Below are positions 32,059 through 47,516 of a DNA stretch of 54,446 bases, one piece after another. The first letter of the stretch is position 1, and the number at the start of each line of letters is the position of its first letter. Source of the DNA: Clostridia bacterium (GTDB lineage Bacteria > Bacillota > Clostridia > Oscillospirales > QAKW01); assembly GCA_017560905.1 (NCBI GenBank), contig JAFZEA010000030.1, positions 1 to 54,446 of the forward strand, in the 5' to 3' direction. The notes under the pieces are model-generated. The model was not told the origin of the DNA. It made no database searches and saw only the letters and a list, made by a program, of their open reading frames with translations. The translations under genes and the position numbers were made by a program.

Positions 32059-35000
32059 TTACTTAATGTAGTTTACGTAGAAGTTCATAATGAGCTTTGC
32101 TGTTTCAGCGCGGGTTGCCGTATCAATGGGACGGAATGTACCGGCCGAATCACCGTTTATAATAGCGGCACGCTGGCAGGTATATACATCCTTCTTAGCC
32201 CAAGTAGCGATCTTGGCATCGTCTTTAAAGGTCTTCTTAACTTCTTTATTCTCCAACTCGATCTCTGCAAAATCCGCATAGGAAATGATCATCTTACACA
32301 TTTCCTGTCGGGTGATGGCGCGGTCGGGCTGGAATACATAGTTGCCTGTACCCTGAACGATACCGCTGACTCTTGCCCACTCAATATAGCCGAAGTAATA
32401 AGCGTTGTCCTTAACATCCTCGAAGTAGGCGTTGGTGTACTGGCTGGCATCAACACCGGTCAGTCTGCCCAGGATGGTTACAAACATACCACGGCTGGTG
32501 GTCATATCGGGAGTGAAGTGAGTTGCATCTGTTCCGTTTACCAGACCGGCGTTATACATAAAGTTAACAGCCTTGGCATACCAGATATTTGCAGGTACGT
32601 CTACGAAATTGTTGCCCTGATCGATCAACTGCTCAAGAATGTCGGTCTTCAGTACGATGCCGCAGTCCACACATTCCTTGACACGCTTGCCGCTGGCAAG
32701 AGTGGTAGCGATCTTGGTGATCTTCCACTTGCCTGCGGTATGGCCGGTAGCGGCATAAGCTTCCGTGCGGTCATAACCGCAAACGGCACACTCATATACA
32801 CGCTCGCCGTCTTCTGTGCAGGTAGCGGGAGTAGATGTGACAAATACATCTCTATGACCCAACTTGGTCAGTACCTTGCTGTCAACCACGTCACCGCACA
32901 TCCGGCAAATGTACTCACTGTAACCGTCGGTATCACAACCGGCAGGTACAACAACGACCCAAACGTAGCTGTGAGAGATGGTGGGCAGTGTATCGCTGGC
33001 CAATACCTCAAGGCAGACTGTACAGCTTCTGGTCTTGTAACCAACGTCTTCGCAGGTGGGATAAGCATCAGTGTGCCATATGCCCATCACATGACCGGTG
33101 GCATAAATGGTTTCTACGCCACTCTGTCCGCAGTTCAGACAATATATACCCATAAGACCGTCAGTGGTACAAGTAACGGGAGTCAGAATTCCGGTTTCAA
33201 TGTTGTTATGAGGCAGTTTTACGATTATAGAGCTGTTGCAGATGTCACCGCAATCGGCACAGATCTGATACTTAACACCGTCCTCCAGACAGTCAGGCTC
33301 AACCTCTACGAACCATTCGCCTGTAGTGTTTTCGTGTGTACAGTATCCGATGCTGATCAGCTCAGTATCCTCGGCACCGCAGTACCGGCAGTAATGTGCC
33401 TTAAATCCTTCGATAGTGCCGGTGGCAGGGATGACCACGATGTAGTCCTCAGACCAGATGTGCTCGATAATTGCGATTGGCTCTTGATCGACAGCTCGGC
33501 AAAACGTACAATTACGCTCGCGCAGACCCTCGGAAATACAGGTAACATTAATGATGTTGGTCCAGCTATCCCAAACGTGACCGCCCCTGTTTTCAAGAAC
33601 CTGAACGGATTCGGCGCCGCAAACGGAGCAGTAGCTGGTCATAGCGCCGTCTTCGGTACAGTTGGGATAAACAGTGATAACGCCATCTCCATAGCTATGG
33701 TTGCCGCGACCCGGAATGATCTCGGCAATAACCTCGTTGTTGTTGGGGCAGTAATACTTGATGTAACCGTCGCCGCAGGTAGGATCCTTAACATCAAAAG
33801 GTGTTTCGGACAGATAGCAATCTGTATGGTCACAGTAAGGACGGATATTGAGTGCATAGGTAAGACCGTCAGCAGTTTCGCCATTGATCTTGATGATCTC
33901 AAGCTCAGCGGTAGCAAAGCCTGCGGTCATGGGAACTGCGTTGTAGTAAACGTCTTGACCGACGGTAACCTTGAACATCATACCATAAGCGGTATTGAGG
34001 TAGTAATAAGCGTCTGTGGTGGTAGTAGTTAGATATTCAACTACATCTGTAGACTCGACCACTGCTTTGTCACTCAGGATATTTTCCAGAGCAAACTCTT
34101 CGTCAACGTAGTTTGCAGCATACTCAACACCGCCGATCACTACGGTAGAGTAATTGTCGCCATTTGACAACAGTACGGGCACGTTGCCGTTGCTGTAAGC
34201 TACGATGCTGCCCAGTGCGTAGTCGGTGTTACCAAAGTTGTAGTCAAAGCCATTAAAGGTATTGTTCTCGGAAGCATCTACCAGACCAGCGTTCTGATTC
34301 TGAATTGCATAAGCAAGCGTAGCAGCATCGTTGGTGTCAAAGGTGTTGTTCTTCAGAGTAATGGTCAGTTCTTCCTGACCTTCCTTTTCGCCGGTAACAA
34401 TGTAGGCATTACCTACTGTACCATCGGCAATAGCAAAGGTATTGTCAGAGAATACGATATCGGCAGTGGCTACGGTAGCACCCACGCCGGCAGTGCTTAC
34501 GAAATCGCCGATATAAATCATATCGGAACAACCGTCAAGCAGGAAATCGTTGTTATCCACTTCGATGCTGACGGGAATATCAGCCGCAGTGGCCATATCG
34601 GTAAAAGTAACCTTGCCGACAATGGTGTTGTTGTAAATATTCAGATCAAGGCCGGTGGAATAGGTTGTTGTGCTGCCGTCGTTGCCCAGAGTAAGATACA
34701 TAGCGTTACTCTTGTCGTTATCGCACAGCATAACGTTGTTGTAAATGTTAACGTCCTCCAGATGTCCGGCGGTGATGATGTTGCTGGCATTGGTAGAAGC
34801 CAGTTCAAAGAAGTTGTCAGCAACTTCGATATTGGTTCTGACACCGTTCTTGGAACCGATAAACTGATCGTTGATATCGGTCAGCTTGATGGGATTTAGA
34901 ATATCGGTGACAGAATTTACAACCTTGACCAGACTGCTGTAGCCTCTCAAATTGGCAGCAGTATTTACGATCTTGGTCATGCCGGCAAAGGCAACACCAT

Positions 35001-37419
35001 CTACAATGATGCCATTCTGATAGTCGGTCTGTACGATGTGATTCTTCCATACCGTTTCCTTGGTCATATCAGTACGGGCAGGATTGATGGCATCGGCAAT
35101 ATCGTCACCATCAGTATCGGTCACACCGCTGACACCTGCCTGTGCGCCGTAGAAGTAGTTGTTCACACCGTGGCTGTCCGCAGAGCCGATCAAAGCGGGA
35201 GTGCCGGTATACTCTTTGGCGAACATATAGATGTGACGTTCGTTGTTTACAACAGGAATATCTTTGATCTGAGCAAAGAGATCGGTACCTACGGTAAATT
35301 GTACCAGAGTGGGTGTACCGTTAATATCCAGTGTGTAGGTAACGCTGCTGCCCTCTGCTGCAGTCAGAGCATTGTCATAATAGTATCTGCCGCTGTAAGC
35401 GGTATCTTTCAGATACGTAGCACCGGGGAGCAGACCCTTGATCAGCAAGGAGAAAGTTACGCTCTTGCCGGTGAGGGCATGGGTTGCGGTCAAGGTATAA
35501 ACATCACCCAGAATTACAAGACCCGTAACATCCGCATCACCACTTTTGATGGAGGTAGCGGTAACATTGGGAGAGAAGAACATCAGCTCACTGATGATCT
35601 GCTCTGCGGTCAGCGAGCCATTCTGCTCTACGGAAATAACGCAGTCACCGCTGATGTCGTCATAAATCTCAGTACCGTCATTGTCAAAACCAAACTCGCC
35701 GCTGAGAACACCACCGGAAACCGGGATGAAGTCGGAGAGCTTAGCGGTCATATCGCCGTTGAGCATAACACTCGTCTGTACTGCGCTACCACCAAGCATG
35801 GGAGCTACGGCAGAACCGTCCAGATCGAGATAAGCATTGTCGGAAACGTCTACGGTATCATTCATACCGGAGAACAGTTCACTCTTGATACCGTAACCGG
35901 TAAAGACGTTGCCGGAGATATCCACTTTGTTAAATGTACCTTCACCGGGCTGCAGAATCTGGCCGTTGGAGATGGTATCGGTATAGTCGGGATACTCGGT
36001 AGCGGTAACAGTATTATCTGTAAAGATCAGATCGGTCAGGCCGAGAATGGTCGCATCAGGAGAGAAGGCAATATAGAGAGCATCACGGTCTGCACTGCTG
36101 TTAGCACCCTTCAGACCGCAGTTCTGCATAATGTTATTGTCAAAGCGGATCTCAATACCGGAACGGGTCTCAGAGGTAATATCGGAAGTACCCTCATAGT
36201 AAACACCGAACAGATAACTGTTGGGCAGGTTGAGATAGCTGTTGTCACAGGTATAGCTGATACCGTGCTTGGCGGTATAGTTGGTGCCCTTGGTGGGGTT
36301 GATATAGAAGCCCATACTGTCCCTGGTAATATCGCTTCTGTTGCTCTTAATAACGGAACCGTCGATGTGGATCTCGTCCAGAATCACTTTACCGAGATAC
36401 AGATCGTTGGTATCCGCTGCCGCGTTCTCAATGTAGCTGTCGTTAATGGACAGGGTCATATACATCTTGACCTTGTTGTTAGCGGGGTTAACACCGACAG
36501 AACCCTGTGCGGCGGCTGCCTTAAAGGCAAACAGACCGTGTTCACCTACGTCATAGTCCTGCAGCAAGGCATTGTTGATGACAAAGTCCGCCTTATTGGC
36601 ATTGCTGTGAATCTTAGACGCTTGAGTAGCATTGACATAAGTACCGAAGTTTACAGCACCGGTACCGGCAATACCGTCGATCACTACGCTGTCGCCATCA
36701 TCCAGAATACCATTGGTATAGAACACGCTTGCGCCAAAAACTGCCTCGGTACCGCTGGTGATAGAACGGGTGGCTGCACCGGTGGTGGTGTTACCGGCTG
36801 CTACGCCTGCGTGAGGACCGAGCACCAAAACATCTTCGAAATCCTTGTAGCCGATAACAAAGTTGCTATTATGTGTGCTGGATGTGCTGTATACCGTATT
36901 ACCGGAAGCAACAAAGCCGGTCGACGTGCTGTATGTACCGGGGAACATCACGATGGTAGCCGCCTGAGAGGTATTACACTGATACAGGTTGGATGCGGTC
37001 ACACCGTAGGTCAGCTTATAAATAATACCGGTGGTGGGCATCTTAGCATAAAACTCGGTACCTACCACAAGTTCTTTACGGTCACCCCTTTTTTCGCCGG
37101 CCGCGGTGGGAGTAGTTGTCTCCAGATTGGAGGAGATAGAACCCGAAAGTGTGGTCAGTGAGGCATCGGTATAAGCATACTCCGTCCAGTCAAGGGCAAT
37201 GAAAATAAAGTTATCTTCTCTGCCGTTGGTACGGGCTGCATACTTATCCTGTGTGGCCAGGTCAACATAGGTTTCGTCACCAACAGGTGCCAGACCTACT
37301 TCAGACCAGATGGCAGGAACAGTTTCAGCTGATACGGTGGGAATGACAAAAGCAGTCAACATGCTCATTGTCATCAGTACAGCCAAAACGATGCTCATCA
37401 AACGTTTTGCTTTTAACAT
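32059..37419 (-). CDS. Giant SLH-anchored surface protein with beta-helix and Cys-rich repeats (1786 aa)
   Basis: A secreted cell-wall protein. Residues 1-31 are a signal peptide (ends PTVSA). Two beta-helix-like halves follow (about 60-560 and 680-1100), rich in DNTF/NNIM turns. Each half opens with a related block: LGPHAG...R...EAV...VVIDG (200-249) and YGAQAG...R...ETV...IIVDG (757-808). Residues about 1195-1600 hold ten degenerate ~35-residue Cys repeats of the type TCTEDGERVYECAVCG...GH. Three SLH domains end the protein (1603-1786, with TSRG, TRQE and TRAE), which should bind secondary cell-wall polymer. AAAAAGGAGAG precedes the ATG. It is paralogous in design to the gene at 40409. Ligand or substrate unknown. 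Confidence 0.9.
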   Translation of the reverse strand: MLKAKRLMSIVLAVLMTMSMLTAFVIPTVSAETVPAIWSEVGLAPVGDETYVDLATQDKYAARTNGREDNFIFIALDWTEYAYTDASLTTLSGSISSNLETTTPTAAGEKRGDRKELVVGTEFYAKMPTTGIIYKLTYGVTASNLYQCNTSQAATIVMFPGTYSTSTGFVASGNTVYSTSSTHNSNFVIGYKDFEDVLVLGPHAGVAAGNTTTGAATRSITSGTEAVFGASVFYTNGILDDGDSVVIDGIAGTGAVNFGTYVNATQASKIHSNANKADFVINNALLQDYDVGEHGLFAFKAAAAQGSVGVNPANNKVKMYMTLSINDSYIENAAADTNDLYLGKVILDEIHIDGSVIKSNRSDITRDSMGFYINPTKGTNYTAKHGISYTCDNSYLNLPNSYLFGVYYEGTSDITSETRSGIEIRFDNNIMQNCGLKGANSSADRDALYIAFSPDATILGLTDLIFTDNTVTATEYPDYTDTISNGQILQPGEGTFNKVDISGNVFTGYGIKSELFSGMNDTVDVSDNAYLDLDGSAVAPMLGGSAVQTSVMLNGDMTAKLSDFIPVSGGVLSGEFGFDNDGTEIYDDISGDCVISVEQNGSLTAEQIISELMFFSPNVTATSIKSGDADVTGLVILGDVYTLTATHALTGKSVTFSLLIKGLLPGATYLKDTAYSGRYYYDNALTAAEGSSVTYTLDINGTPTLVQFTVGTDLFAQIKDIPVVNNERHIYMFAKEYTGTPALIGSADSHGVNNYFYGAQAGVSGVTDTDGDDIADAINPARTDMTKETVWKNHIVQTDYQNGIIVDGVAFAGMTKIVNTAANLRGYSSLVKVVNSVTDILNPIKLTDINDQFIGSKNGVRTNIEVADNFFELASTNASNIITAGHLEDVNIYNNVMLCDNDKSNAMYLTLGNDGSTTTYSTGLDLNIYNNTIVGKVTFTDMATAADIPVSIEVDNNDFLLDGCSDMIYIGDFVSTAGVGATVATADIVFSDNTFAIADGTVGNAYIVTGEKEGQEELTITLKNNTFDTNDAATLAYAIQNQNAGLVDASENNTFNGFDYNFGNTDYALGSIVAYSNGNVPVLLSNGDNYSTVVIGGVEYAANYVDEEFALENILSDKAVVESTDVVEYLTTTTTDAYYYLNTAYGMMFKVTVGQDVYYNAVPMTAGFATAELEIIKINGETADGLTYALNIRPYCDHTDCYLSETPFDVKDPTCGDGYIKYYCPNNNEVIAEIIPGRGNHSYGDGVITVYPNCTEDGAMTSYCSVCGAESVQVLENRGGHVWDSWTNIINVTCISEGLRERNCTFCRAVDQEPIAIIEHIWSEDYIVVIPATGTIEGFKAHYCRYCGAEDTELISIGYCTHENTTGEWFVEVEPDCLEDGVKYQICADCGDICNSSIIVKLPHNNIETGILTPVTCTTDGLMGIYCLNCGQSGVETIYATGHVMGIWHTDAYPTCEDVGYKTRSCTVCLEVLASDTLPTISHSYVWVVVVPAGCDTDGYSEYICRMCGDVVDSKVLTKLGHRDVFVTSTPATCTEDGERVYECAVCGYDRTEAYAATGHTAGKWKITKIATTLASGKRVKECVDCGIVLKTDILEQLIDQGNNFVDVPANIWYAKAVNFMYNAGLVNGTDATHFTPDMTTSRGMFVTILGRLTGVDASQYTNAYFEDVKDNAYYFGYIEWARVSGIVQGTGNYVFQPDRAITRQEMCKMIISYADFAEIELENKEVKKTFKDDAKIATWAKKDVYTCQRAAIINGDSAGTFRPIDTATRAETAKLIMNFYVNYIK

Positions 37420-37500
37420 AACATTTCTCTCCTTTTTCCGACTGATCCATATACTTATATATTATAATATAAAAGAGTATAATAGCGCAGTCTATTACTC

Positions 37501-37528
37501 ACTATATATTTTACATTATAATTGTCAA
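37501..37528 (-). promoter_or_regulatory. Promoter of the first SLH gene
   Basis: Minus strand TTGACA (37528-37523), 16-base spacer, TATAGT (37506-37501), giving a leader of about 75 bases. The leader contains TAATAGACT, which also lies upstream of the second SLH gene. Confidence 0.6.
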
Positions 37529-37588
37529 AAATGCAAGTGTAAGCATTGGACTGTTGTGCCAAAAACAAAGTCATTTTTTTGTGCAACA

Positions 37589-37990
37589 TCAACAAAGTTC
37601 TTCAAAGGTCCGACGGTGCAAATAGCGTGCCGCCATTTTGCGTACCGACTCGGCGGTATTTCCGCCGCCTGCATGGGCCGCCACCTGTTGCCAACTATAA
37701 CCATCCACATATTTTCGGGTCAAAATAACATATATGTACTGGTCTTCGATCTCGTCAAAAAACCGTTCCACATCACGACGGGCATCCTTCGTTTTTTCCA
37801 GGTGAAAGTTCGCCAGGAGCTGTCTGTCTTTTATTTCTTCGTACCTTTGGATCGCCCACTGAGAGTCCGCTCCCTTAACGATCATTTCCTCCAGATTCTT
37901 TTTCGCCTGTTCTAATTTTTCAAGTGTCCGCTCTGCTCTGTCGCAGCAGCGCGCCAGTTGTATTCTCGCTTTCAGATCTCTGCCTGTCAC
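37589..37990 (-). CDS. Phage-type transcriptional regulator-like protein (ArpU/DUF1492-like)
   Basis: A 133-aa protein. Residues ~10-90 are charged and helical, with coiled-coil character. The C-terminal part (ILTRKYVDGYSWQQVAAHAG, then NTAESVRKMAARYLHRR) reads as a sigma-region-4-like helix-turn-helix, resembling small late-gene activators of Firmicutes phages (ArpU, RinA, DUF1492). Family placement is by pattern only. The start is GTG 37990 behind AGGAGGG at 6 bases. It follows the zinc-ribbon gene by 17 bases in the same leftward operon. No clear terminator separates it from the SLH gene downstream. Confidence 0.72.
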   Translation of the reverse strand: MTGRDLKARIQLARCCDRAERTLEKLEQAKKNLEEMIVKGADSQWAIQRYEEIKDRQLLANFHLEKTKDARRDVERFFDEIEDQYIYVILTRKYVDGYSWQQVAAHAGGGNTAESVRKMAARYLHRRTFEELC

Positions 37991-38007
37991 TTGTATCCCT
38001 CCTTACA

Positions 38008-38166
38008 TTATTCCCAACGATCATCACACTCCCCTGCCTTATGAAACATTTCCGGTGCCTTACAGCAGGGGCAGGCATAGTAGTACTCACCACCGTAATC
38101 GGGATACGGATGAAAGTAGCGCCTGGGGCGGGTAAACACACAATTACAATTAAAACAATAATACAA
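38008..38166 (-). CDS. Small phage-like zinc-ribbon protein (52 aa)
   Basis: A 52-aa protein with YCFNCNC near the N-terminus and ACPCCKAP near residue 32, so four cysteines can form one zinc ribbon; the tail is acidic (AGECDDRWE). Similar short CxxC...CPxC proteins are common early genes in Firmicutes phages. I start it at TTG 38166 because AGGAGG lies 7 bases upstream; a longer ORF to TTG 38229 has no good RBS. It is the first gene after the consensus leftward promoter. Confidence 0.65.
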   Translation of the reverse strand: MYYCFNCNCVFTRPRRYFHPYPDYGGEYYYACPCCKAPEMFHKAGECDDRWE

Positions 38167-38236
38167 TTTCTTTCCTCCTGTCCGTTTTTTGTCCCCGTAA
38201 ATGCGGTACCATAATTTACAGTAGGACAAATTTCTT

Positions 38237-38335
38237 TACTACCTTTTGTAGTATGTATATATTATACTACCACTTTTAGTAGTTGTCAACCACTTTTTTT
38301 AGTTTTTATGTTGACTTTTACTATGATATGTAGTA
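38237..38335. promoter_or_regulatory. Operator set of the phage-type repressor
   Basis: Three dyads of one type: TACTAC-N5-GTAGTA (38237-38253, perfect), TACTAC-N8-GTAGTT (38265-38284), and TACTAT-N5-GTAGTA (38319-38335). The first covers the expected start of leftward transcription, the second fills the spacer between its -35 and -10, and the third lies before the repressor gene. They are predicted binding sites of the repressor encoded at 38371. Confidence 0.75.
38261..38289 (-). promoter_or_regulatory. Perfect consensus leftward promoter under operator control
   Basis: Minus strand TTGACA (38289-38284), exactly 17 bases, TATAAT (38266-38261). It drives the zinc-ribbon and regulator genes and is overlapped by operator dyads. 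Confidence 0.8.
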
Positions 38336-38370
38336 ACCTTATATCAAACAAAAGGGGATGGGAATTTAAT

Positions 38371-38679
38371 ATGTTAGAAATCAGACTTAAAGAATTGCGA
38401 GCCAAAAACGGACTGAGTCAGAAAGCGCTGGCAGAAATGCTACACGTCAGCCAACAAACGGTAGGCAAATGGGAAACCGAGGGAGCCACGCCCAATCCCG
38501 ATATGCTGTCCCGCATAGCAGATATATTTGAGGTTACGGTAGACTACCTCATCGGACACAGTGACAGCGAATACGACGATACCGCACTAAAGTTCGCATT
38601 ATTTGGCGGTGATGTTGATGACGAAATTTTGGAAGAGGTCAAACGATTTGCAAAATATGCCCGTGACAGAAAGAATTAA
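38371..38679 (+). CDS. Cro/CI-type (ImmR-like) helix-turn-helix repressor
   Basis: A 102-aa regulator. Residues 1-65 form an HTH_3/XRE domain: LKELRAKNGLSQKALAEML, recognition helix HVSQQTVGKWETEGATPNP, then MLSRIADIFEVTVDYLIGHS. A short acidic helical tail follows, where ImmR-like repressors are cut. ATG 38371 begins the conserved domain; an in-frame ATG at 38308 would place 21 extra residues over the operator region and is rejected. The next gene is an ImmA-type peptidase, so relief of repression by proteolysis is likely. It should bind the TACTAC dyads upstream. Confidence 0.88.
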   Translation: MLEIRLKELRAKNGLSQKALAEMLHVSQQTVGKWETEGATPNPDMLSRIADIFEVTVDYLIGHSDSEYDDTALKFALFGGDVDDEILEEVKRFAKYARDRKN

Positions 38680-39115
38680 TAGAACAAACCACAGAGATGT
38701 GCCTATGTCAGTTGCCGCACTGTATGAAATGGCGGAAAGGCGAAAAATACCCGTATATTCATTTCCCTTCAAAAAGTTGCCTTCGCTGAGTATTATGGAC
38801 GATGACGGTGACTGCGCCATCGGGCTTCAAAACGAATTACGGGGCCCACAAGAGCACGTGTGCCTTGCTCATGAGATGGGGCACTGTCTGACCGGCGCCT
38901 TTTACCGCCGTACCACTTCCGGTGCTGTCCGTGGCAAGTGTGAATACAAGGCGGACAAATGGGCCTTTTACCGTCTGGTGCCGCCCACCGTCTTGGAGAA
39001 GCTGCTCATTGAGGACAGCCTATCCGTCGAAGAAATAGCTGAACATTTTGACGTAACCATAGACTTTTTACTGCGGGCGATGGACTATTACGCCTGCGTA
39101 AAGCCAATGAAGTAA
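38648..39115 (+). CDS. ImmA/IrrE family metallopeptidase
   Basis: A protein of about 155 aa with the zinc-protease motif CLAHEMGHCLTGAF (HExGH) and a downstream CEYKADKWAFYRL, where the Glu/Asp-x-x-A-D/N-x-F pattern supplies the third ligand. The C-terminal SVEEIAEHFDVTIDFLLRA is an HTH-like helical end, as in many ImmA proteins. The start is unsettled: TTG 38648 has AGAGG 9 bases upstream, ATG 38657 and ATG 38705 are also in frame. It overlaps the repressor gene, consistent with an ImmR-ImmA pair in which the peptidase cleaves the repressor. Confidence 0.85.
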   Translation: MQNMPVTERINRTNHRDVPMSVAALYEMAERRKIPVYSFPFKKLPSLSIMDDDGDCAIGLQNELRGPQEHVCLAHEMGHCLTGAFYRRTTSGAVRGKCEYKADKWAFYRLVPPTVLEKLLIEDSLSVEEIAEHFDVTIDFLLRAMDYYACVKPMK

Positions 39116-39142
39116 TGTATCCCGCTCGACAAAATTAAGACA

Positions 39143-39180
39143 AAAAAATTCCCGAGTTGTCACAACTCGGGAATTTTTTT
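39143..39180. terminator. Terminator shared by ImmA and beta-lactamase-family genes
   Basis: AAAAAATTCCCGAGTTGT pairs with ACAACTCGGGAATTTTTT between convergent genes. Confidence 0.85.
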
Positions 39181-40306
39181 ATGAATTTAAAAGAATATCG
39201 TAAATCTTATCCCTTACCTCGGGGAACAGTGTAAAATAAGAAAATTTGCTTCTCCCGACTTGAATCAGATACACCATAGCAATCTGATTGTCCGGATCGA
39301 TAAAGGAAACACTGCCGGCGGCGCCATCCCAGCCAAATTCCCCCACAGGGCTTTTGGCACCTGCTTTTTCGGGATATTTCATAGTACGGACACCCAAGCC
39401 ATAGCTGTATCCTTGCTCAAATTTTGAAAACTCACCCTCCAGTATCTCATCGCTGACCTGCGGGGTTCGCATCAGTTCAATCGCCGCCTGCCCCAGTATC
39501 GGGTGCTCGTCGTGAAATGCTGTGGACATGGCGGATACAAACTTGCCATAATCCTCTGTAGAAGTGATCAGTCCCGCACCGCCGGATTCATATGCCTGCG
39601 AAACCACAAACCCGTTACGAAAATCAATCGGGTAAATCTTGTCTTTCACATCATCACGCCTGAATTGTGCCGCCAGATTGCGACGAATGGCAGGGGTTTC
39701 ACGGAAGGTAGTGTCATTCATACCCAAAGGCGCAAAAATATGCTCCTGCAAATACTCGCCAAATGTCTTACCGGTAACCACTTCCACCACTCGTGCCGCC
39801 ACATCGTGACTCAAAGAATACTTATACTTTGTTCCAGGCTCAAAGCGGAGCGGATCGGCCGCAACAGCATTAATAAATTTTTCAGTGGTAAGCATCGGGT
39901 CACGCATTGCCTCCAGTCTGGACGGACTGTCCAAACGGTAGTCAAGGCCCGATGTCATGCTGAGCAGGTGCTTGATCTTGATTTTCTTTTTTGCAGGGCG
40001 AACTGTCCCATCTTTTTCCAACACCTTCATATCGGAAAAAGCAGGAATGTAGTTGGCAACGTAGTCCTCCAACCAGATTTCTCCTCGTTCCACGCACTGC
40101 ATAACCGCAGTCATCGTAATGGGCTTGGTCATCGAATAAATGTAATACCGTGTGTCCGGCGAAACGGATTTACGGCGCAGGTAATCGCAGGTACCGTTCA
40201 TACAGCGGTACACCTCTTTGCCCTGATGAAACACCATCAGATCAATACCGGGAATCTGATTGTCCGGCAGAGAACGTATATATTTTGTCAAATCATCAAA
40301 ATTCAT
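39179..40306 (-). CDS. Beta-lactamase family (class C/PBP4*-like) serine hydrolase
   Basis: A 375-aa serine hydrolase of the AmpC/EstB/PBP4* group. The SxxK nucleophile motif is SMTKPITMTAVMQ (near residue 55), the Tyr motif is YKYSLSHDVAARV (near 163), and IKHLLSMTSGLDY is the usual helix after the first motif. No signal peptide is seen, so it is probably cytoplasmic. Members act as esterases, D-amino-acid peptidases or transesterases; resistance to beta-lactams is not implied. It sits between the phage-type switch and the second SLH gene, with no visible link to either. Confidence 0.88.
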   Translation of the reverse strand: MNFDDLTKYIRSLPDNQIPGIDLMVFHQGKEVYRCMNGTCDYLRRKSVSPDTRYYIYSMTKPITMTAVMQCVERGEIWLEDYVANYIPAFSDMKVLEKDGTVRPAKKKIKIKHLLSMTSGLDYRLDSPSRLEAMRDPMLTTEKFINAVAADPLRFEPGTKYKYSLSHDVAARVVEVVTGKTFGEYLQEHIFAPLGMNDTTFRETPAIRRNLAAQFRRDDVKDKIYPIDFRNGFVVSQAYESGGAGLITSTEDYGKFVSAMSTAFHDEHPILGQAAIELMRTPQVSDEILEGEFSKFEQGYSYGLGVRTMKYPEKAGAKSPVGEFGWDGAAGSVSFIDPDNQIAMVYLIQVGRSKFSYFTLFPEVRDKIYDILLNS

Positions 40307-40363
40307 AAACCATCCTCAACGTTTCTATTCTCATCGAATATCTTCATTTACTATAAATAGTGT

Positions 40364-40397
40364 TAAAAAGCGGAAGCTTGCACTTCCGCCTTTTTAA
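40364..40397 (-). terminator. Terminator of the second SLH gene
   Basis: AAAAAGCGGAAGC...GCTTCCGCTTTTT-type stem, with a T run on the minus strand. Confidence 0.75.
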
Positions 40398-40408
40398 GAT
40401 ACAGTTAC

Positions 40409-43400
40409 TTAAAGAACGTAGTCTTCCATAAAGGTGACCAAGATCTTAGCGGTTTCTGCACGGGTAGCGTTTGCGTGAGGAGCAAAGTTGTTGCCCGGTC
40501 TACCGCTGACAAGACCAGCCTTCTGACAACGTGCCACGCTCTTCTTGGCAAACTTTGCAATAGAAGCATCATCAGCAAAGGTGATGGCCTCGATGTCTTG
40601 CTTCAGAGCAATGTCTGCATAGTCAACGTAACGAACCAGTACCGTGCACATTTCCTGACGAGTGATGTCACCCTCGGGATCAAAGGTATCTTCGTCGCGA
40701 CCGGAAACGATTTTGTTCTGCTCGGCCCAAGCAACGGCACCATTGTACCAGGCTTTGACAGGCACGTCAGCAAACTCTTTGGTGCTGTACTTTGAGGTCT
40801 TGACACCTGCAACACGGCTGATCATAACAACAGCCTCAGCACGGGTAACAAAGTTGCCGGGACGGAAGGTCTGATCTTCGTAACCGGTGGTTATGCCGTA
40901 AACAGCTGCCATATTGACATAGTCAGCGTACCAAGCGTCGTCCTCAACGTCGGTGAAAGCAGTGCTTCTGGGCAGCAGTTTAACCAGTTCGGTCTTGACG
41001 CAAACGTTACAAATCTTTTCGATCTTACCGGTCTGATTGATGGTAGCGGGAGTGATAACGTTTTTGAAATCATGAGCACCTGTTACGCAGGTATTATCTT
41101 CATCAGTGTCAACAAAACCACAGAGATCGCAGGTTCTTTCCAGTTCTTTGGCGTGCAGGCAGTCACCCTCAACAGTTACCTTCCAATCCTCGGTGTAACG
41201 GTGGAATTCACCGGAGGCAGGAATGATGGCACGGGTAGAATCTTCAATGCCGTAGCAAGCCTTACAGAAGCGCTGGGTCACACCGTCGGTTTCGCAGGTA
41301 GCTTCGTTGGTAACGAAGTTGCCCCAGTTATGAATACCGGTAGCAAGCAGTGTCTCGGTCAAAGTTTCGTCAATGTTACCGCATTTGGTGCAGGTATACT
41401 CAACCTTACCGTCGACAGCACAGCCGGGTTCGGTGGTTGAAGCCTTATGATTGTGGCCAAGGGCCGTGATGGGCAGAGTTTCAACTGCATCGCAGTTGGC
41501 GCAACCTCTGCACTGCTCACCATTGAGCGTACATTCAGCTGCTACAACAACTTCCCAATCGTTCCATTCGTGACCGGGAGCGGGTTCCGCTTTTTCATCC
41601 ACATATCCGCAGCCTCTTTCGCAGGTACGATGGTAAATGGCGTCGTGTGTGCAGTCGCCCTCAAAAAAGATTGCCCAATCCTCTTCGTCATAGTCGTGAC
41701 CCAGAGCGGTTTCCTTATACTCAATACCGCTGATCTGTTCGCTGCAACGAACGCAGAATACGTACTCACCGCCGTTTTCGGTACAGGTGGCATGTACGAT
41801 GGTGGGATTGGCTTCCTCAACATGGCCCAATGCGGGGCGAACCACATTTTCATCGAGTTTACACAGAGCGCACTCACGGGTATCGGTACCGTCATCAGTA
41901 CAGGTTTCGTTGAGGGAGATGAAATACTCGCTCCAATTATGAGCCGCGTGAACGGAGGTGGTTACGGTAAATACAACCTCGACATTCTCGATCTGTGCCA
42001 AAACATAAAACTTATCAACGGTTACCGTGCCCGTAATTTCATTGGTGCAAGCCTTATCGCTGTAAAGGCCGACAACGGTAACGCCCTCTGCGCCGGCAAA
42101 CAGCTCGGGCTCAAATTCATCCAGACCGCAGATCAAATTGGCGTCCACAGCAAAGTCGGGTAAAGTAGTCAGCTCATAGTCAGCAGAAAGTTCTTCCAAA
42201 TTAAATTTAAAATCAGTATCCTTAACCGTCTGTTCGCGGTTCATATAGTACCAATCGCTCTTGCTGACATTTTCAGATTCTTTGGCAACGATAGCGGTAA
42301 CAACCTCTTTGCCGCCCACGATGGTGGCGAAATAGTTTTCATCCAGACTGGTAATAGCCGCATCTACATCGCTCTGGCTCAGACGAACAGGCTCAGTGAA
42401 GTTAACGAATACGTTACCGGAAACCTCGGCGTCGGTATAAGCGTTTGCGCTTCCGGTACCGACGGCGTAGATAAAGGGTTTGGTTGCCTTGGCATTTTCG
42501 GTAACGGTATTGTTGGTAAATACCATAGAAGTGTTATCCATCTTAGAAGGAACGCCCAATCTCAGAGCATAACCCCTCTCTTCGCAACCGGAGGACATGA
42601 CGTTCTCGAAGGTGTTGCCGTCAAAGGTCTGCTGAATGCCCTTGGGGAAGTATTCGCCGGTACAGTGACCGGAGTTACCCCAGCTGGCGGTGGGATATTC
42701 AACGTAGTTGGTATAGATAAAGTTTTTATCCTCAGTGCCCCAATCCTTGATATAGCAGTTTGTCATTTCAAAGCCGCAATAGTCGGGGGACAGACGCATC
42801 TGTCTGCCGTCGGGCATTCTCGTAATGACAAGTGCACCGATACCGCCGGTGGCATATACCCTGTCAAGCTTGATATCATACAGACCGGAGGAAATCAGGG
42901 AATAACCGTTGGCCTTATTGATAACGGCGGTGTCACTGAGATACAGCGAACGCTTATTCTTGGATTCCAGAAAAGCATCACCGGAGGAAATTCCGTCAAA
43001 GGCGTGGTTGGACAGGCCGTTAAAGAAGGTATTCTTCATAATGGTGGTAACGTTGCCGCCGCCGGAAGCCCAGTCGTGAGTCGGCTTGGCATCGTCCATG
43101 GAGATGCGGAAGGATTCGGAGATCACACCGTCTACTGCCAGAGTGGTATTGTAATGATATACAACGATTCCGCCCTTAAGAACAGCCTCTTCGCTTGCAT
43201 CTGCCGTATAATTCAAGCCGCTGCCGCTGATTCCACGATCAGCAGTGTTGACACTCATATCCTTGTTAAGAGGAGAAATGCCAAACTTGGGACCAACCAT
43301 AATAGTGGGATAATCGTCAATACGGTCGGCGGTACTGCCCGAAGAGGTATATCCGGAGAGCCGATGCTCGCCGGGCAGGAATACCCATACCTGACGGCTC

Positions 43401-45529
43401 GTCTTAGCCGCATCCACGGTAGTGGCAACGCGGTTGTCGTCATTAAGGGTATATGCTGTGCCGTTGAAAGTATAGGAGGTCTTGGAGTCGGTGGGATCGA
43501 TAAACAGCATATCGTCGGCATCGGCGATTTTGATGTTGTAGGTTACGGTACAAGTAGTCTTACTGCCCTTATAAGTGGCGATCATCGTGGCACCGTTCAG
43601 GTCAGAGGGCTTGGCCTTGGCGAGCTGAACACCGGTGCCGTCATACAGGGCTACAAACTCGACATCATTACCGCGGAAAGTAAATATCTCTTCGACAGGA
43701 TAGCTCTTCTCGGTAAGATAAGGAACGATAAGCACGTCAGCGGTAGGCTCGGCAGGAACGGTGGTGGTGAAGGAAGAAACCTTGCTGACCATTCCCATAT
43801 CCTTACCGTCGGTCAGTGTGAACATTTCAACGATACCGCCGGCAAAGTCGTCGCCCGCATAACTGTCAAAAGCATGATCTTTGACATCGTATCCACCGGT
43901 TGCATAGTTCATAACCGTGCCGTTTTCATCCATAACAAGCATAGAAGACGTATCGACATATTTTATATTTCTATTGAACAGTACCAGAGGAGAGCTGAGG
44001 TTATGCTTGAAGAGGATCATCTTGTTGTTTTTGAAATAGAAGTCATGCTTACAGGAAGTGGTGTTCAGATCGGTACTATTGGCCTCTGAGAAATTGATCA
44101 GCGCACCGCCACTGGTCTTTGCCTTAGTATAGGAATCGGTGGTATGATCGTAGCTGTCGCTGAGTCCGGCCTTGGTATACTGAATGGTATTATTGATAAA
44201 ATTAAAATTCAGCGCACCGCTCGTAAGATCAAAAGCCCAGTCATCCTGGAAGGAAATGGTATCTGTGATGCTGGCGCTGTCAGACAAAGAGCTGGCCGTC
44301 ACGCCGCCGTAAGTGGTGCGCATAGTATCACCGCAGTTATAGAAGGTACAACCGTCAAAAGTGATATTGATGGAGTCTGCGGGAGCTTCGGCATACTCAG
44401 AATGGTCGAGATAAAATCTCATCCAGTTTGCTTGCTTGGAGTTGTTGACAACAACATTGCGATAGGTGTACTCAGCAGCTGTCACACCATCACCCAGCCA
44501 GCCCTCGGCAATACGCTCGGCAGGCTGCGGATAACAGCGCATCATATAGCCTATGTTGTTCTGAGTGGCATTGTAAAGGAGCTCTGTACAGTCATAGTAC
44601 ACATTGTCCTCAAGAAAACGATCCACGGACATATTCCAGTTAGTGCCGGACCAGTTGGGCGTATGCTTGTAGTCTAAGTAGTAGTCATGCATCTCAAAGT
44701 TAGCAGACATCCAGCTCAGAGAATAACGGAACAGACCGTTGGAATACTCAGAATCAAGCACATGGTAGATATTCTTCAGAACGGTAGAGGTATAGGGATA
44801 AGCCGCGGTGAGACTGTTTCGGTAGAAGTTTGTGTCGCCTCTGAGGGCAAAGCCGTCGATTACCACCTGCCCGTTTCTGGGAGACCAGATGGTAGAGGTG
44901 GAAACAGCTTCTTTGGTATTATCGACACTTCTGCCGTTCTGTGCCACAGGCCTGGCGTGATCGATATCCTCGGTAACGGGGTTCTTACCTGCCTGGGGAC
45001 CCAGAATGGTGTAAGAAAACAGTTCAAAGTAAGCAGGATCGACGATCACCTTGCCCGTAGCGGAATCGATGGGCAGATCAAAAGTGGGGCTGGCCTTATT
45101 CTGGAAGGTATGGCTGCCGTAGGTGCCGGGAGCCACAATAACGGTATCGGGGCCGGTATAGTTCTCCACCGAAGTATTGGCCGCATTCCAGGTGTCCTGA
45201 ATAAGAGTAACTGCCTCATGCACCTGTTCAAAGGCGTTAACGCCCATCGTCAGACGATAGGTTACACCGGTACCCCAGTTTTCGCCATCACCGTAGGTGT
45301 AATCAAAAGATTCGCCGGATGCGGCGGTAAATTTGGGACTGGTAAACAGTACCTTACTGCCGGGCAACCATACGTCACCCTCAATAAGAGTGGGTTCGAT
45401 CACTGCATAGGGATCGACAACCGCGCTATCCTCCGCGGCCACTACCGTGACAGCAAAAGAAGACAGCATGGAAATGCACATCACTACGCATGCAATCAAT
45501 GCAATTAACTTCTTGCTCTTCTGTAACAT
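40409..45529 (-). CDS. Giant SLH-anchored surface protein with beta-helix and Cys-rich repeats (1706 aa)
   Basis: Same layout as the protein at 32059. Signal peptide 1-31 (ends VTVVA). First beta-helix-like half about 90-590, opening with VIVAPGTY, then LGPQAG...R...EAV...VVIDG (176-226). Linker with an Ig-like look (about 595-670). Second half about 675-1130 with VGPKFG...R...EAV...LAVDG (745-801). About eight Cys repeats lie in residues 1230-1515 (TCTENGGEYVFCVRCSEQ, ECTLNGEQCRGCANCD). Three SLH domains occupy 1525-1706 (TRAE, TRQE, TRAE). It should be displayed on the cell wall. The two proteins are too divergent to be a recent duplication. Function unknown; adhesion or glycan binding is possible. 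Confidence 0.9.
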   Translation of the reverse strand: MLQKSKKLIALIACVVMCISMLSSFAVTVVAAEDSAVVDPYAVIEPTLIEGDVWLPGSKVLFTSPKFTAASGESFDYTYGDGENWGTGVTYRLTMGVNAFEQVHEAVTLIQDTWNAANTSVENYTGPDTVIVAPGTYGSHTFQNKASPTFDLPIDSATGKVIVDPAYFELFSYTILGPQAGKNPVTEDIDHARPVAQNGRSVDNTKEAVSTSTIWSPRNGQVVIDGFALRGDTNFYRNSLTAAYPYTSTVLKNIYHVLDSEYSNGLFRYSLSWMSANFEMHDYYLDYKHTPNWSGTNWNMSVDRFLEDNVYYDCTELLYNATQNNIGYMMRCYPQPAERIAEGWLGDGVTAAEYTYRNVVVNNSKQANWMRFYLDHSEYAEAPADSINITFDGCTFYNCGDTMRTTYGGVTASSLSDSASITDTISFQDDWAFDLTSGALNFNFINNTIQYTKAGLSDSYDHTTDSYTKAKTSGGALINFSEANSTDLNTTSCKHDFYFKNNKMILFKHNLSSPLVLFNRNIKYVDTSSMLVMDENGTVMNYATGGYDVKDHAFDSYAGDDFAGGIVEMFTLTDGKDMGMVSKVSSFTTTVPAEPTADVLIVPYLTEKSYPVEEIFTFRGNDVEFVALYDGTGVQLAKAKPSDLNGATMIATYKGSKTTCTVTYNIKIADADDMLFIDPTDSKTSYTFNGTAYTLNDDNRVATTVDAAKTSRQVWVFLPGEHRLSGYTSSGSTADRIDDYPTIMVGPKFGISPLNKDMSVNTADRGISGSGLNYTADASEEAVLKGGIVVYHYNTTLAVDGVISESFRISMDDAKPTHDWASGGGNVTTIMKNTFFNGLSNHAFDGISSGDAFLESKNKRSLYLSDTAVINKANGYSLISSGLYDIKLDRVYATGGIGALVITRMPDGRQMRLSPDYCGFEMTNCYIKDWGTEDKNFIYTNYVEYPTASWGNSGHCTGEYFPKGIQQTFDGNTFENVMSSGCEERGYALRLGVPSKMDNTSMVFTNNTVTENAKATKPFIYAVGTGSANAYTDAEVSGNVFVNFTEPVRLSQSDVDAAITSLDENYFATIVGGKEVVTAIVAKESENVSKSDWYYMNREQTVKDTDFKFNLEELSADYELTTLPDFAVDANLICGLDEFEPELFAGAEGVTVVGLYSDKACTNEITGTVTVDKFYVLAQIENVEVVFTVTTSVHAAHNWSEYFISLNETCTDDGTDTRECALCKLDENVVRPALGHVEEANPTIVHATCTENGGEYVFCVRCSEQISGIEYKETALGHDYDEEDWAIFFEGDCTHDAIYHRTCERGCGYVDEKAEPAPGHEWNDWEVVVAAECTLNGEQCRGCANCDAVETLPITALGHNHKASTTEPGCAVDGKVEYTCTKCGNIDETLTETLLATGIHNWGNFVTNEATCETDGVTQRFCKACYGIEDSTRAIIPASGEFHRYTEDWKVTVEGDCLHAKELERTCDLCGFVDTDEDNTCVTGAHDFKNVITPATINQTGKIEKICNVCVKTELVKLLPRSTAFTDVEDDAWYADYVNMAAVYGITTGYEDQTFRPGNFVTRAEAVVMISRVAGVKTSKYSTKEFADVPVKAWYNGAVAWAEQNKIVSGRDEDTFDPEGDITRQEMCTVLVRYVDYADIALKQDIEAITFADDASIAKFAKKSVARCQKAGLVSGRPGNNFAPHANATRAETAKILVTFMEDYVL

Positions 45530-45662: not shown

Positions 45663-45702
45663 ATTCCCGTCCGACAAAAGCGGACGGGAAAAGCTTTATT
45701 TT
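45663..45702 (-). terminator. Terminator of typA
   Basis: TTCCCGTCCG...CGGACGGGAA stem, then T6 on the minus strand. Confidence 0.8.
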
Positions 45703-47516
45703 TTTCGGTTGACGTACTTAAGTCGTTCAACGTTGCTCATGATCTGCTTGCGCAGACGGATATTGAGCGGTGTCACCTCGATAAGCTCATCTTCTTTGAT
45801 AAACTCGATGCACTCCTCCAGACTCATCTTTTTGCAAGGAATCAGTCGCAGGGCATCGTCACTGCCGGAGGCACGGGTATTGGTGATATGCTTTTTCTTG
45901 CAAACATTGACGGCAATATCATCTCCCTTGGGATTGCAGCCGACGATCATACCCTCATACACAGGCGTACCCGCCTCAATAAAGAGCTGACCTCTCTCCT
46001 GCGCATTAAACAGACCGTAGGTAACGGCCGTACCCGTTTCAAAGGCAATCAGAGAGCCCACGCCACGTTCGGGAATATCGCCCTTAAAGGGTTGATAGCA
46101 CTCAAAGATCGAACTCATAATGCCCTCGCCCTTGGTGGAGGTGAGAAATTCATTCTTATAGCCGAACAGACCTCTGGAGGGTACCAGAAATTCTATGCGC
46201 ATACGGCTGCCGGAGGGCTCCATTTTTTGCATTTCGCCCCGACGAGCGCCCATCTGTTCCATAACAGGTCCCATATATTCCTCGGGTACGTCAACCTCCA
46301 TACGCTCGATGGGTTCACAGCGCACACCGTCGATCTCTTTATAGAGAACCTTGGGGTTGGAAACGGAAAACTCGTACCCTTCGCGGCGCATCGTTTCGAT
46401 CAGAATGGACAGATGCATCTCACCGCGCCCTGCAACATAGAAGCACTCGGCAGTCTCGCCGTCGCGAACCTTGAGCGAAACGTCCTTGAGCAGCTCTCTC
46501 TGCAGGCGGTCGCGGATATGACGGGAAGTTACAAACTTACCATCCTGTCCCGCAAAGGGAGAATCGTTGACGGCAAAGCGCATTTCGATGGTGGGCTCAC
46601 CGATCTTTACAAAGGGAAGTGCTTCGGGGAAATCCTTGGCGCACAAGGTTTCGCCGATGGTAATATCACTGATGCCGCTAAAGCATACAATGTCGCCGAC
46701 CTTGGCGCGCTCGATGGGTACACGGCGCAATCCTTCAATGGCAAACAGCGCAGGCAAACGACCGTTTCTCTTGACTTCGGGATTGTGAAAATCGGTAACA
46801 CAGACATCCATATTCAGCGAGATCTCGCCTCGGGTGATCTGCCCGATGCCGATACGTCCCACGTAATCGTTATAGTCAATGGAAGACACCAGCATCTGCA
46901 GCGGTGCCTCAGCATCACCCTCGGGAGCATCGATATGCTCAATGATCTTTTCAAACAACACACTCAGATCCCGTCCCTGTACGTCGGGTGACAAAGATGC
47001 AGTGCCCGCTCTGCCCGAGCAAAATACCACGGGGCTGTCCAGCTGCTCGTCAGTGGCATCCAGATCGATCAGCAACTCCAGCACCTCGTCCAAAACCTCG
47101 TGAGGACGGGCATCCGGCTTGTCCACCTTATTGACAACAACGATGATCTTGTGTCCCATTTCCAGTGCTTTTTGCAGTACAAAACGGGTCTGCGGCATAG
47201 GACCTTCCGCCGCATCTACCAGCAGAAGTACGCCGCTGACCATCTTCAGAATACGCTCCACTTCACCCGAAAAATCCGCGTGTCCGGGAGTGTCAACAAT
47301 ATTAATTTTCACACCTTGCCACGCAGCAGATGTGTTTTTAGCCATAATGGTAATACCCCGCTCTCTTTCCAGATCGCCGGAGTCCATCACACGATCCTCA
47401 ACTTCCTGACCGGCACGAAAAACTCCGCCCTGCTTGAGCATCTCATCTACCAGTGTGGTCTTACCGTGGTCAACGTGTGCAATGATAGCAACATTTCTCA
47501 AATCTTTTCTAAGCAA
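45696..47516 (-). CDS. typA: Translational GTPase TypA/BipA
   Basis: A 606-aa ribosome-binding GTPase involved in 50S assembly and stress or cold responses. G motifs: [14 protein letters not shown] (about residues 13-26), [25 protein letters not shown], and CSGRAG. EF-G-like domains III and V follow ([39 protein letters not shown]), then the BipA-specific C-terminal domain ([19 protein letters not shown]). Translation starts at TTG 47516 behind AAAGGAGAG. Full length. Confidence 0.97.

What the first reader, a model, noticed from the sequence alone, without database searches (positions are those of the whole stretch)
32059..45529. Four copies of an apparently undescribed beta-helix entry block in two giant SLH proteins
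Each protein opens both of its beta-helix-like halves with the same pattern: a pGTY-like strand or its variant, then [LYV]G-[PA]-x-[AF]-G, a 15-25 residue loop with an Arg, E-[AT]-V, and then [IVL]-x-VDG or VVIDG. Positions are 200-249 and 757-808 in the 1786-aa protein, and 176-226 and 745-801 in the 1706-aa protein. The loops are unlike each other while the anchors are kept, which suggests a modular ligand-binding or capping element. I know of no named domain with this signature.
Basis: partly seen in the sequence, partly recalled or inferred. Interest (0 to 1): 0.7.

Follow-up and report, generated by a model that had tools for sequence, protein, structure and literature searches.

The report
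Ordinary first coil of surface beta-helices
The four look-alike blocks are real, but they are the standard first turn of a very common spiral-shaped (right-handed beta-helix) protein fold, here in a drifted, long-looped form used four times in two big cell-wall-anchored proteins of an uncultured gut bacterium.

Summary
The four blocks lie at the stated residues in two SLH proteins, and eight-plus copies occur in this genome. An HMM built only from other genera finds three of the four (4.5e-8, 4.5e-8, 2e-5; best decoy 0.077). P1-N scores only 0.34 there and is reached through its paralogue. "Undescribed domain" is not supported. [quoted passage not shown] All 12 genomes of the same taxonomic family have it. 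The same signature, G[PA]xAG[IV][DN]PN...R...E[AT][VI]...DG, occurs in several other phyla and an archaeon. NCBIfam's NosD model starts on it in 11 of 16 representatives and in another protein of this genome. Profile-profile comparison with NosD-type openers gives 98.1%, against 0.2% or less for shuffled controls. Low-confidence models match beta-helix enzymes and adhesins from the block onward. The loops are not unrelated: an Arg and a Glu recur across phyla. Likely role: first rung and cap of each helix, inside wall-anchored, probably glycan-associated surface proteins. Interest low.

The parts
32062..37419 (-). P1: 1786-aa secreted surface protein: signal peptide, two beta-helices, Cys/His repeats, 3 SLH
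36637..36972 (-).
   Evidence: block profile hit 1.9e-27 with a model that includes it; 0.34 with the out-of-genus model
34954..35298 (-).
   Evidence: out-of-genus HMM 4.5e-8
35680..36996 (-). P1 N-terminal beta-helix, residues ~142-580
   Evidence: low-pLDDT model matches right-handed beta-helices, Z 10-12, rmsd ~4-6 A over 200-270 residues
40412..45529 (-). P2: 1706-aa secreted surface protein of the same layout
44813..45157 (-).
   Evidence: out-of-genus HMM 4.5e-8
43085..43444 (-).
   Evidence: out-of-genus HMM 2e-5
42236..43399 (-). P2 C-terminal beta-helix, residues ~711-1098
   Evidence: model part matches right-handed beta-helices, Z 16-20, rmsd ~4 A over ~270 residues, alignment starting at the block
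32062..32631 (-). P1 three SLH repeats (cell-wall anchor)
   Evidence: PF00395 8.5e-26
40412..40978 (-). P2 three SLH repeats
   Evidence: PF00395 9.6e-35

Best explanation
[quoted passage not shown] The strands are the GtY strand, the LxG strand, the E[AT]V strand and the VxIDG strand. GPxAGxxPN...R...E is the turn between the second and third strands, enlarged to a long loop in this lineage. The small residues and turn Gly/Asp close the first rung; the conserved Arg and Glu in the loop probably hold it over the end of the hydrophobic core (inferred). The proteins are exported, sit on the wall through three SLH repeats, and display the helices. By analogy with relatives fused to CE2 carbohydrate acetylesterases, the helices probably contact polysaccharide (inferred, weaker). 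Shown: position, conservation, homology to the known opener, SLH repeats. Inferred: Arg/Glu capping, glycan contact, non-enzymatic role.
For: Blocks occur in 12/12 genomes of the same family, usually paired 511-581 residues apart in 1.6-1.8k-aa SLH proteins. Same signature with a short loop (GPNAGIDPNTGxRGPEAVI...VTIDG) in other phyla and an archaeon. NosD model positions 1 onward match representatives, 11 of 16, and own-genome C39:22523 (1.5e-4), where the block profile also hits (2.7e-10). DUF1565 spans the block in L142, 23.4 bits against cut-off 20.3. hhalign to NosD openers: 98.1% over 75 columns (A3), 96.4% (61 blocks), controls at most 0.2%. Profile A6 finds pectin methylesterases in the PDB at their N-terminal opener, E 0.0017. 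Structure matches are nearly all right-handed beta-helices and begin at the block. CE2 esterase fusions.
Against: Both AlphaFold2 models have low confidence (pLDDT 39 and 45), so the fold rests on sequence links plus weak models, and no superposition of the four halves was possible. The eight own-genome blocks alone give only 4.4% against NosD openers; the link needs intermediates. P1-N is the weakest (0.34). No direct data on ligand.
Confidence: 0.9

Rival explanations
1. The block is a distinct lineage-specific module whose variable loop binds ligands, inserted in front of each helix.
For: No Pfam or NCBIfam model hits the window copies. Loops of 19-33 residues in this lineage against 10 in other phyla.
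Against: The same block continues without a break into the common opener of beta-helix proteins in many phyla. Anchors in the loop (PN, Arg, Glu) are conserved, as expected for structure, and in many Clostridia the loop has a fixed motif (DPNV...DWT.NP.RG.GEAV).
Confidence: 0.07
2. The helices are polysaccharide lyases or hydrolases and the block contributes to a catalytic site.
For: Best structural matches include PL6 alginate lyases (several with two tandem helices) and RbmB; relatives are fused to CE2 esterases.
Against: No catalytic-family Pfam hit. In the nine-protein alignment A4 the invariant columns are mostly Gly/Asn/Asp plus some hydrophobic or small residues; the only invariant Glu is in the block and no Lys, Arg or His is invariant. 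The structural matches also include non-enzymatic adhesins (PfbA, SRRP).
Confidence: 0.12
3. The resemblance among the four blocks is chance or low-complexity convergence of Gly/Thr/Asp-rich secreted proteins.
For: Pairwise identity of the blocks is mostly only about 20-30%; phmmer of the halves finds no cross-match.
Against: Out-of-genus HMM scores against composition-matched decoys; family-wide conservation and spacing.
Confidence: 0.01

Closest known systems
NosD-type beta-helix opener (TIGR04247 NosD_copper_fam)
   Same: FsTIqxAi..GdtI.v.pGtY.E.i.I.K.l.L.Gp...g.aiI.......vtIdG order of strands; profile-profile 98.1% over 75 columns for A3
   Different: The window copies lack the clear F-TI-A helix and carry a 19-30 residue loop after LxG; they are not NosD proteins (no match in the window proteins)
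PF07602 DUF1565 / PF13229 Beta_helix
   Same: DUF1565 spans the homologous block in relative L142
   Different: No hit in the window proteins even at E 1
Pectin methylesterases (PDB 2nsp, 1qjv, 5c1c)
   Same: N-terminal opener aligned residue by residue with the block profile
   Different: No pectinesterase catalytic domain match in the window proteins
PL6 alginate lyases with two tandem beta-helices (5gkd, 7o77, 7dmk)
   Same: Two right-handed beta-helices in tandem; whole-model match, Z ~19-20 but rmsd ~25 A
   Different: 8-13% identity; no sign of the lyase site
ChiW CBM54 of Paenibacillus (PMC5132251)
   Same: SLH-anchored surface protein with a right-handed beta-helix of a family that binds cell-wall glycans
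   Different: ChiW carries GH18 catalytic domains; sequence relation not tested

Membership tests
Right-handed parallel beta-helix (pectin lyase-like) superfamily | Canonical N-terminal strand order and sequence of the helix opener | tested here: met
   hhalign 96.4-98.1% against shuffled controls at most 0.2%; NosD model on 11/16 representatives; pectinesterase openers E 0.0017. Met through intermediates, not by the eight own copies alone (4.4%)
Right-handed parallel beta-helix (pectin lyase-like) superfamily | Helical fold of stacked coils starting at the block | tested here: inconclusive
   Top structure matches are such helices and start at the block (P2-C Z 16-20, P1-N Z 10-12), but pLDDT is 39-45
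NosD (TIGR04247) | Whole-protein score above 300 bits | tested here: not met
   No NosD hit in the two window proteins; only the opener is shared in relatives
DUF1565 (PF07602) | Score above the gathering cut-off | tested here: not met
   Not in the window proteins nor in the own genome; met in cross-phylum relative L142
SLH-anchored surface proteins | Signal peptide and three SLH repeats | tested here: met
   PF00395 x3 in both proteins; hydrophobic N-terminus seen in the sequence, no signal-peptide predictor run
Polysaccharide lyases/pectinesterases (enzymes) | Family catalytic residues | tested here: inconclusive
   No catalytic Pfam hit and no invariant Lys/Arg/His in A4; the alignment is shallow and 16-23% identical to P1
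CBM54 | Sequence match to CBM54 and glycan binding | not tested
   Known only from PMC5132251

The most novel reading that the evidence does not exclude
The long Arg/Glu-anchored loop of this lineage (19-33 residues against 10 elsewhere) is a real functional elaboration of the first beta-helix coil, diversified between the four helices to give each a different glycan or partner specificity, or to dock one helix onto the end of the preceding one.
Probability: 0.12. Interest if true: 0.4.

Novelty: new member of a known kind. Interest (0 to 1): 0.15.

Why it matters
It shows that large, unannotated surface proteins of an uncultured, mostly herbivore-gut Clostridia lineage are probably tandem beta-helices on SLH anchors. 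It also gives a signature, G[PA]xAG[IV][DN]PN-x(n)-R-x(n)-E[AT][VI]-x(n)-DG, that marks helix starts where Pfam sees nothing. That helps annotation; it does not change what is known of the fold.

Tried and rejected
Single-sequence Pfam, NCBIfam and PHROGs scans of the window proteins (only SLH-related hits). PDB search with the eight own blocks (none). A DNA pattern search for the motif (uninformative). Viral-contig scan with A3 (62 pattern hits, none confirmed). tblastn against plasmids (none). The G407 hit was inspected and rejected: not the motif. Literature search for the motif string gave only unrelated hits.

Full report
What was checked. The two proteins are P1 (window 32062-37419, minus, 1786 aa) and P2 (40412-45529, minus, 1706 aa).

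Is it more than chance? The window lies in an incomplete MAG of 1.0 Mb. A profile of the blocks (A1, then A2) finds eleven places in this genome, eleven in its genus-mate and one to seven in every other held genome of the same taxonomic family, 12 of 12; outside the family, in the order, only three weak hits among about 380 genomes. An HMM trained only on other genera finds P1-C (4.5e-8), P2-N (4.5e-8) and P2-C (2e-5), with the best decoy at 0.077. P1-N scores only 0.34 but is 51% identical over 494 residues to helix c of the paralogue P3, which belongs to the set. In family members the arrangement is the same: two openers 511-581 residues apart in a 1.6-1.8k-aa protein ending in SLH repeats, plus single-opener proteins of about 1.05-1.26k aa with SLH.

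What it is. In relatives less diverged than the window proteins the block reads, for example, 'SPVILLCAGTYTETITITSAVTLLGPNAGMDPNVKTSEKDQAWSLSTERGSEAIIKSNVIV...ITIDGLRF' (L084/L108). A scan of named genomes with six such sequences returned 36 loci. Besides gut Clostridia these include Gimesia, Isosphaeraceae, Phycisphaeraceae, Spartobacteria, Dyadobacter, Anaerolineaceae, Calditrichaeota, Solirubrobacterales and a Methanomassiliicoccaceae archaeon. In those that the block HMM confirmed, the motif is 'LLGPNAGIDPNTGTRGPEAVI...VTIDG' with a 10-residue loop. NCBIfam's NosD model matches the block in 11 of 16 representatives. The same model hits the own genome at C39:22523-22636 (1.5e-4), the very place where the block profile scores 2.7e-10. 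DUF1565 (above its cut-off) covers the block in L142. Profile-profile alignment with NosD-type openers collected from the same phylum gives 98.1% over 75 columns for A3 and 96.4% for all 61 blocks, while twenty column-shuffled controls stay at or below 0.2%; the eight own-genome copies alone give 4.4%, so the link depends on intermediates. In the PDB the best sequence matches of the profile are pectin methylesterases at their N-terminal opener (E 0.0017; marginal with A3).

Structure. AlphaFold2 with a shallow nine-sequence alignment gave weak models (pLDDT 39 and 45). With that caution, P2 model residues about 637-1020 (protein 711-1094) match right-handed beta-helices at Z 16-20 with rmsd about 4 A over about 270 residues (RbmB, PfbA, tailspikes, SRRP, PL6), and P1 model residues 33-470 (protein 142-579) at Z 10-12. 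In both cases the match starts at the opener. Tandem-helix PL6 alginate lyases match the whole P2 model only loosely (rmsd about 25 A).

The loop. Across 82 distinct blocks, 65 keep an Arg shortly before the Glu of E[AT]V, in proteins whose Arg content is only 2.9% (a regular-expression count, a few rows of which are off register). Loop length runs from 10 (other phyla) to 19-33 (this lineage and other gut Clostridia). So the loops vary in length and residues but are not unrelated, and their fixed points are what one expects of a structural turn. That the Arg and Glu cap the first coil is inference.

Function. Shown: hydrophobic export signal by eye, SLH repeats, two openers per protein. In gut Clostridia, six relatives carry the same opener in front of a CE2 carbohydrate acetylesterase (L115, L117, L118, L122, L128, L131), and L132 carries it after the esterase; in this genome a protein cut by a contig end has CE2 followed by the block. 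This makes contact with polysaccharide the most likely role, as known for the beta-helix CBM54 of SLH-anchored ChiW (PMC5132251). Invariant positions in the nine-protein alignment are mostly Gly, Asn and Asp with some hydrophobic or small residues; no Lys, Arg or His is invariant, which speaks against a conserved lyase site but does not exclude it.

Verdict. A correct and well-drawn observation, with an ordinary explanation: a drifted copy of a widespread beta-helix start. The element that is specific to this lineage is the longer loop, and nothing here shows that it binds anything.

Noticed in passing
L022:2277-9758 (own genome C9) and L079 (genus-mate C55): A 2493-aa paralogue has four helices whose order is P2-N, P2-C, P1-N, P1-C like, the transcription order of the two window genes: a fusion of, or ancestor to, the P2-P1 pair. 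It has no SLH repeats detected.
   Followed up: partly
window 32635-33867 and 41000-41962: Tandem Cys/His repeats (about 45 aa; TC...DG...C..CG...GH..) between helices and SLH in both proteins, not covered by Pfam; look like small metal-binding modules and recur in other surface proteins of this genome.
   Followed up: no
L023:3-2000 (own genome C19), L115, L117, L118, L122, L128, L131, L132: Recurrent fusion of this beta-helix opener with CE2 carbohydrate acetylesterase domains in gut Clostridia.
   Followed up: partly
L025 (own genome C20:1-4531) and L022: A 720-aa open fragment at a contig end starts with a stretch nearly identical to the interior of P3, then diverges into Cys/His repeats: a recent duplication or an assembly break between repeats.
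   Followed up: no
window 39179-40306: A beta-lactamase-fold (PF00144) serine hydrolase lies between the two SLH genes on the same strand, with typA (45696-47516) upstream.
   Followed up: no
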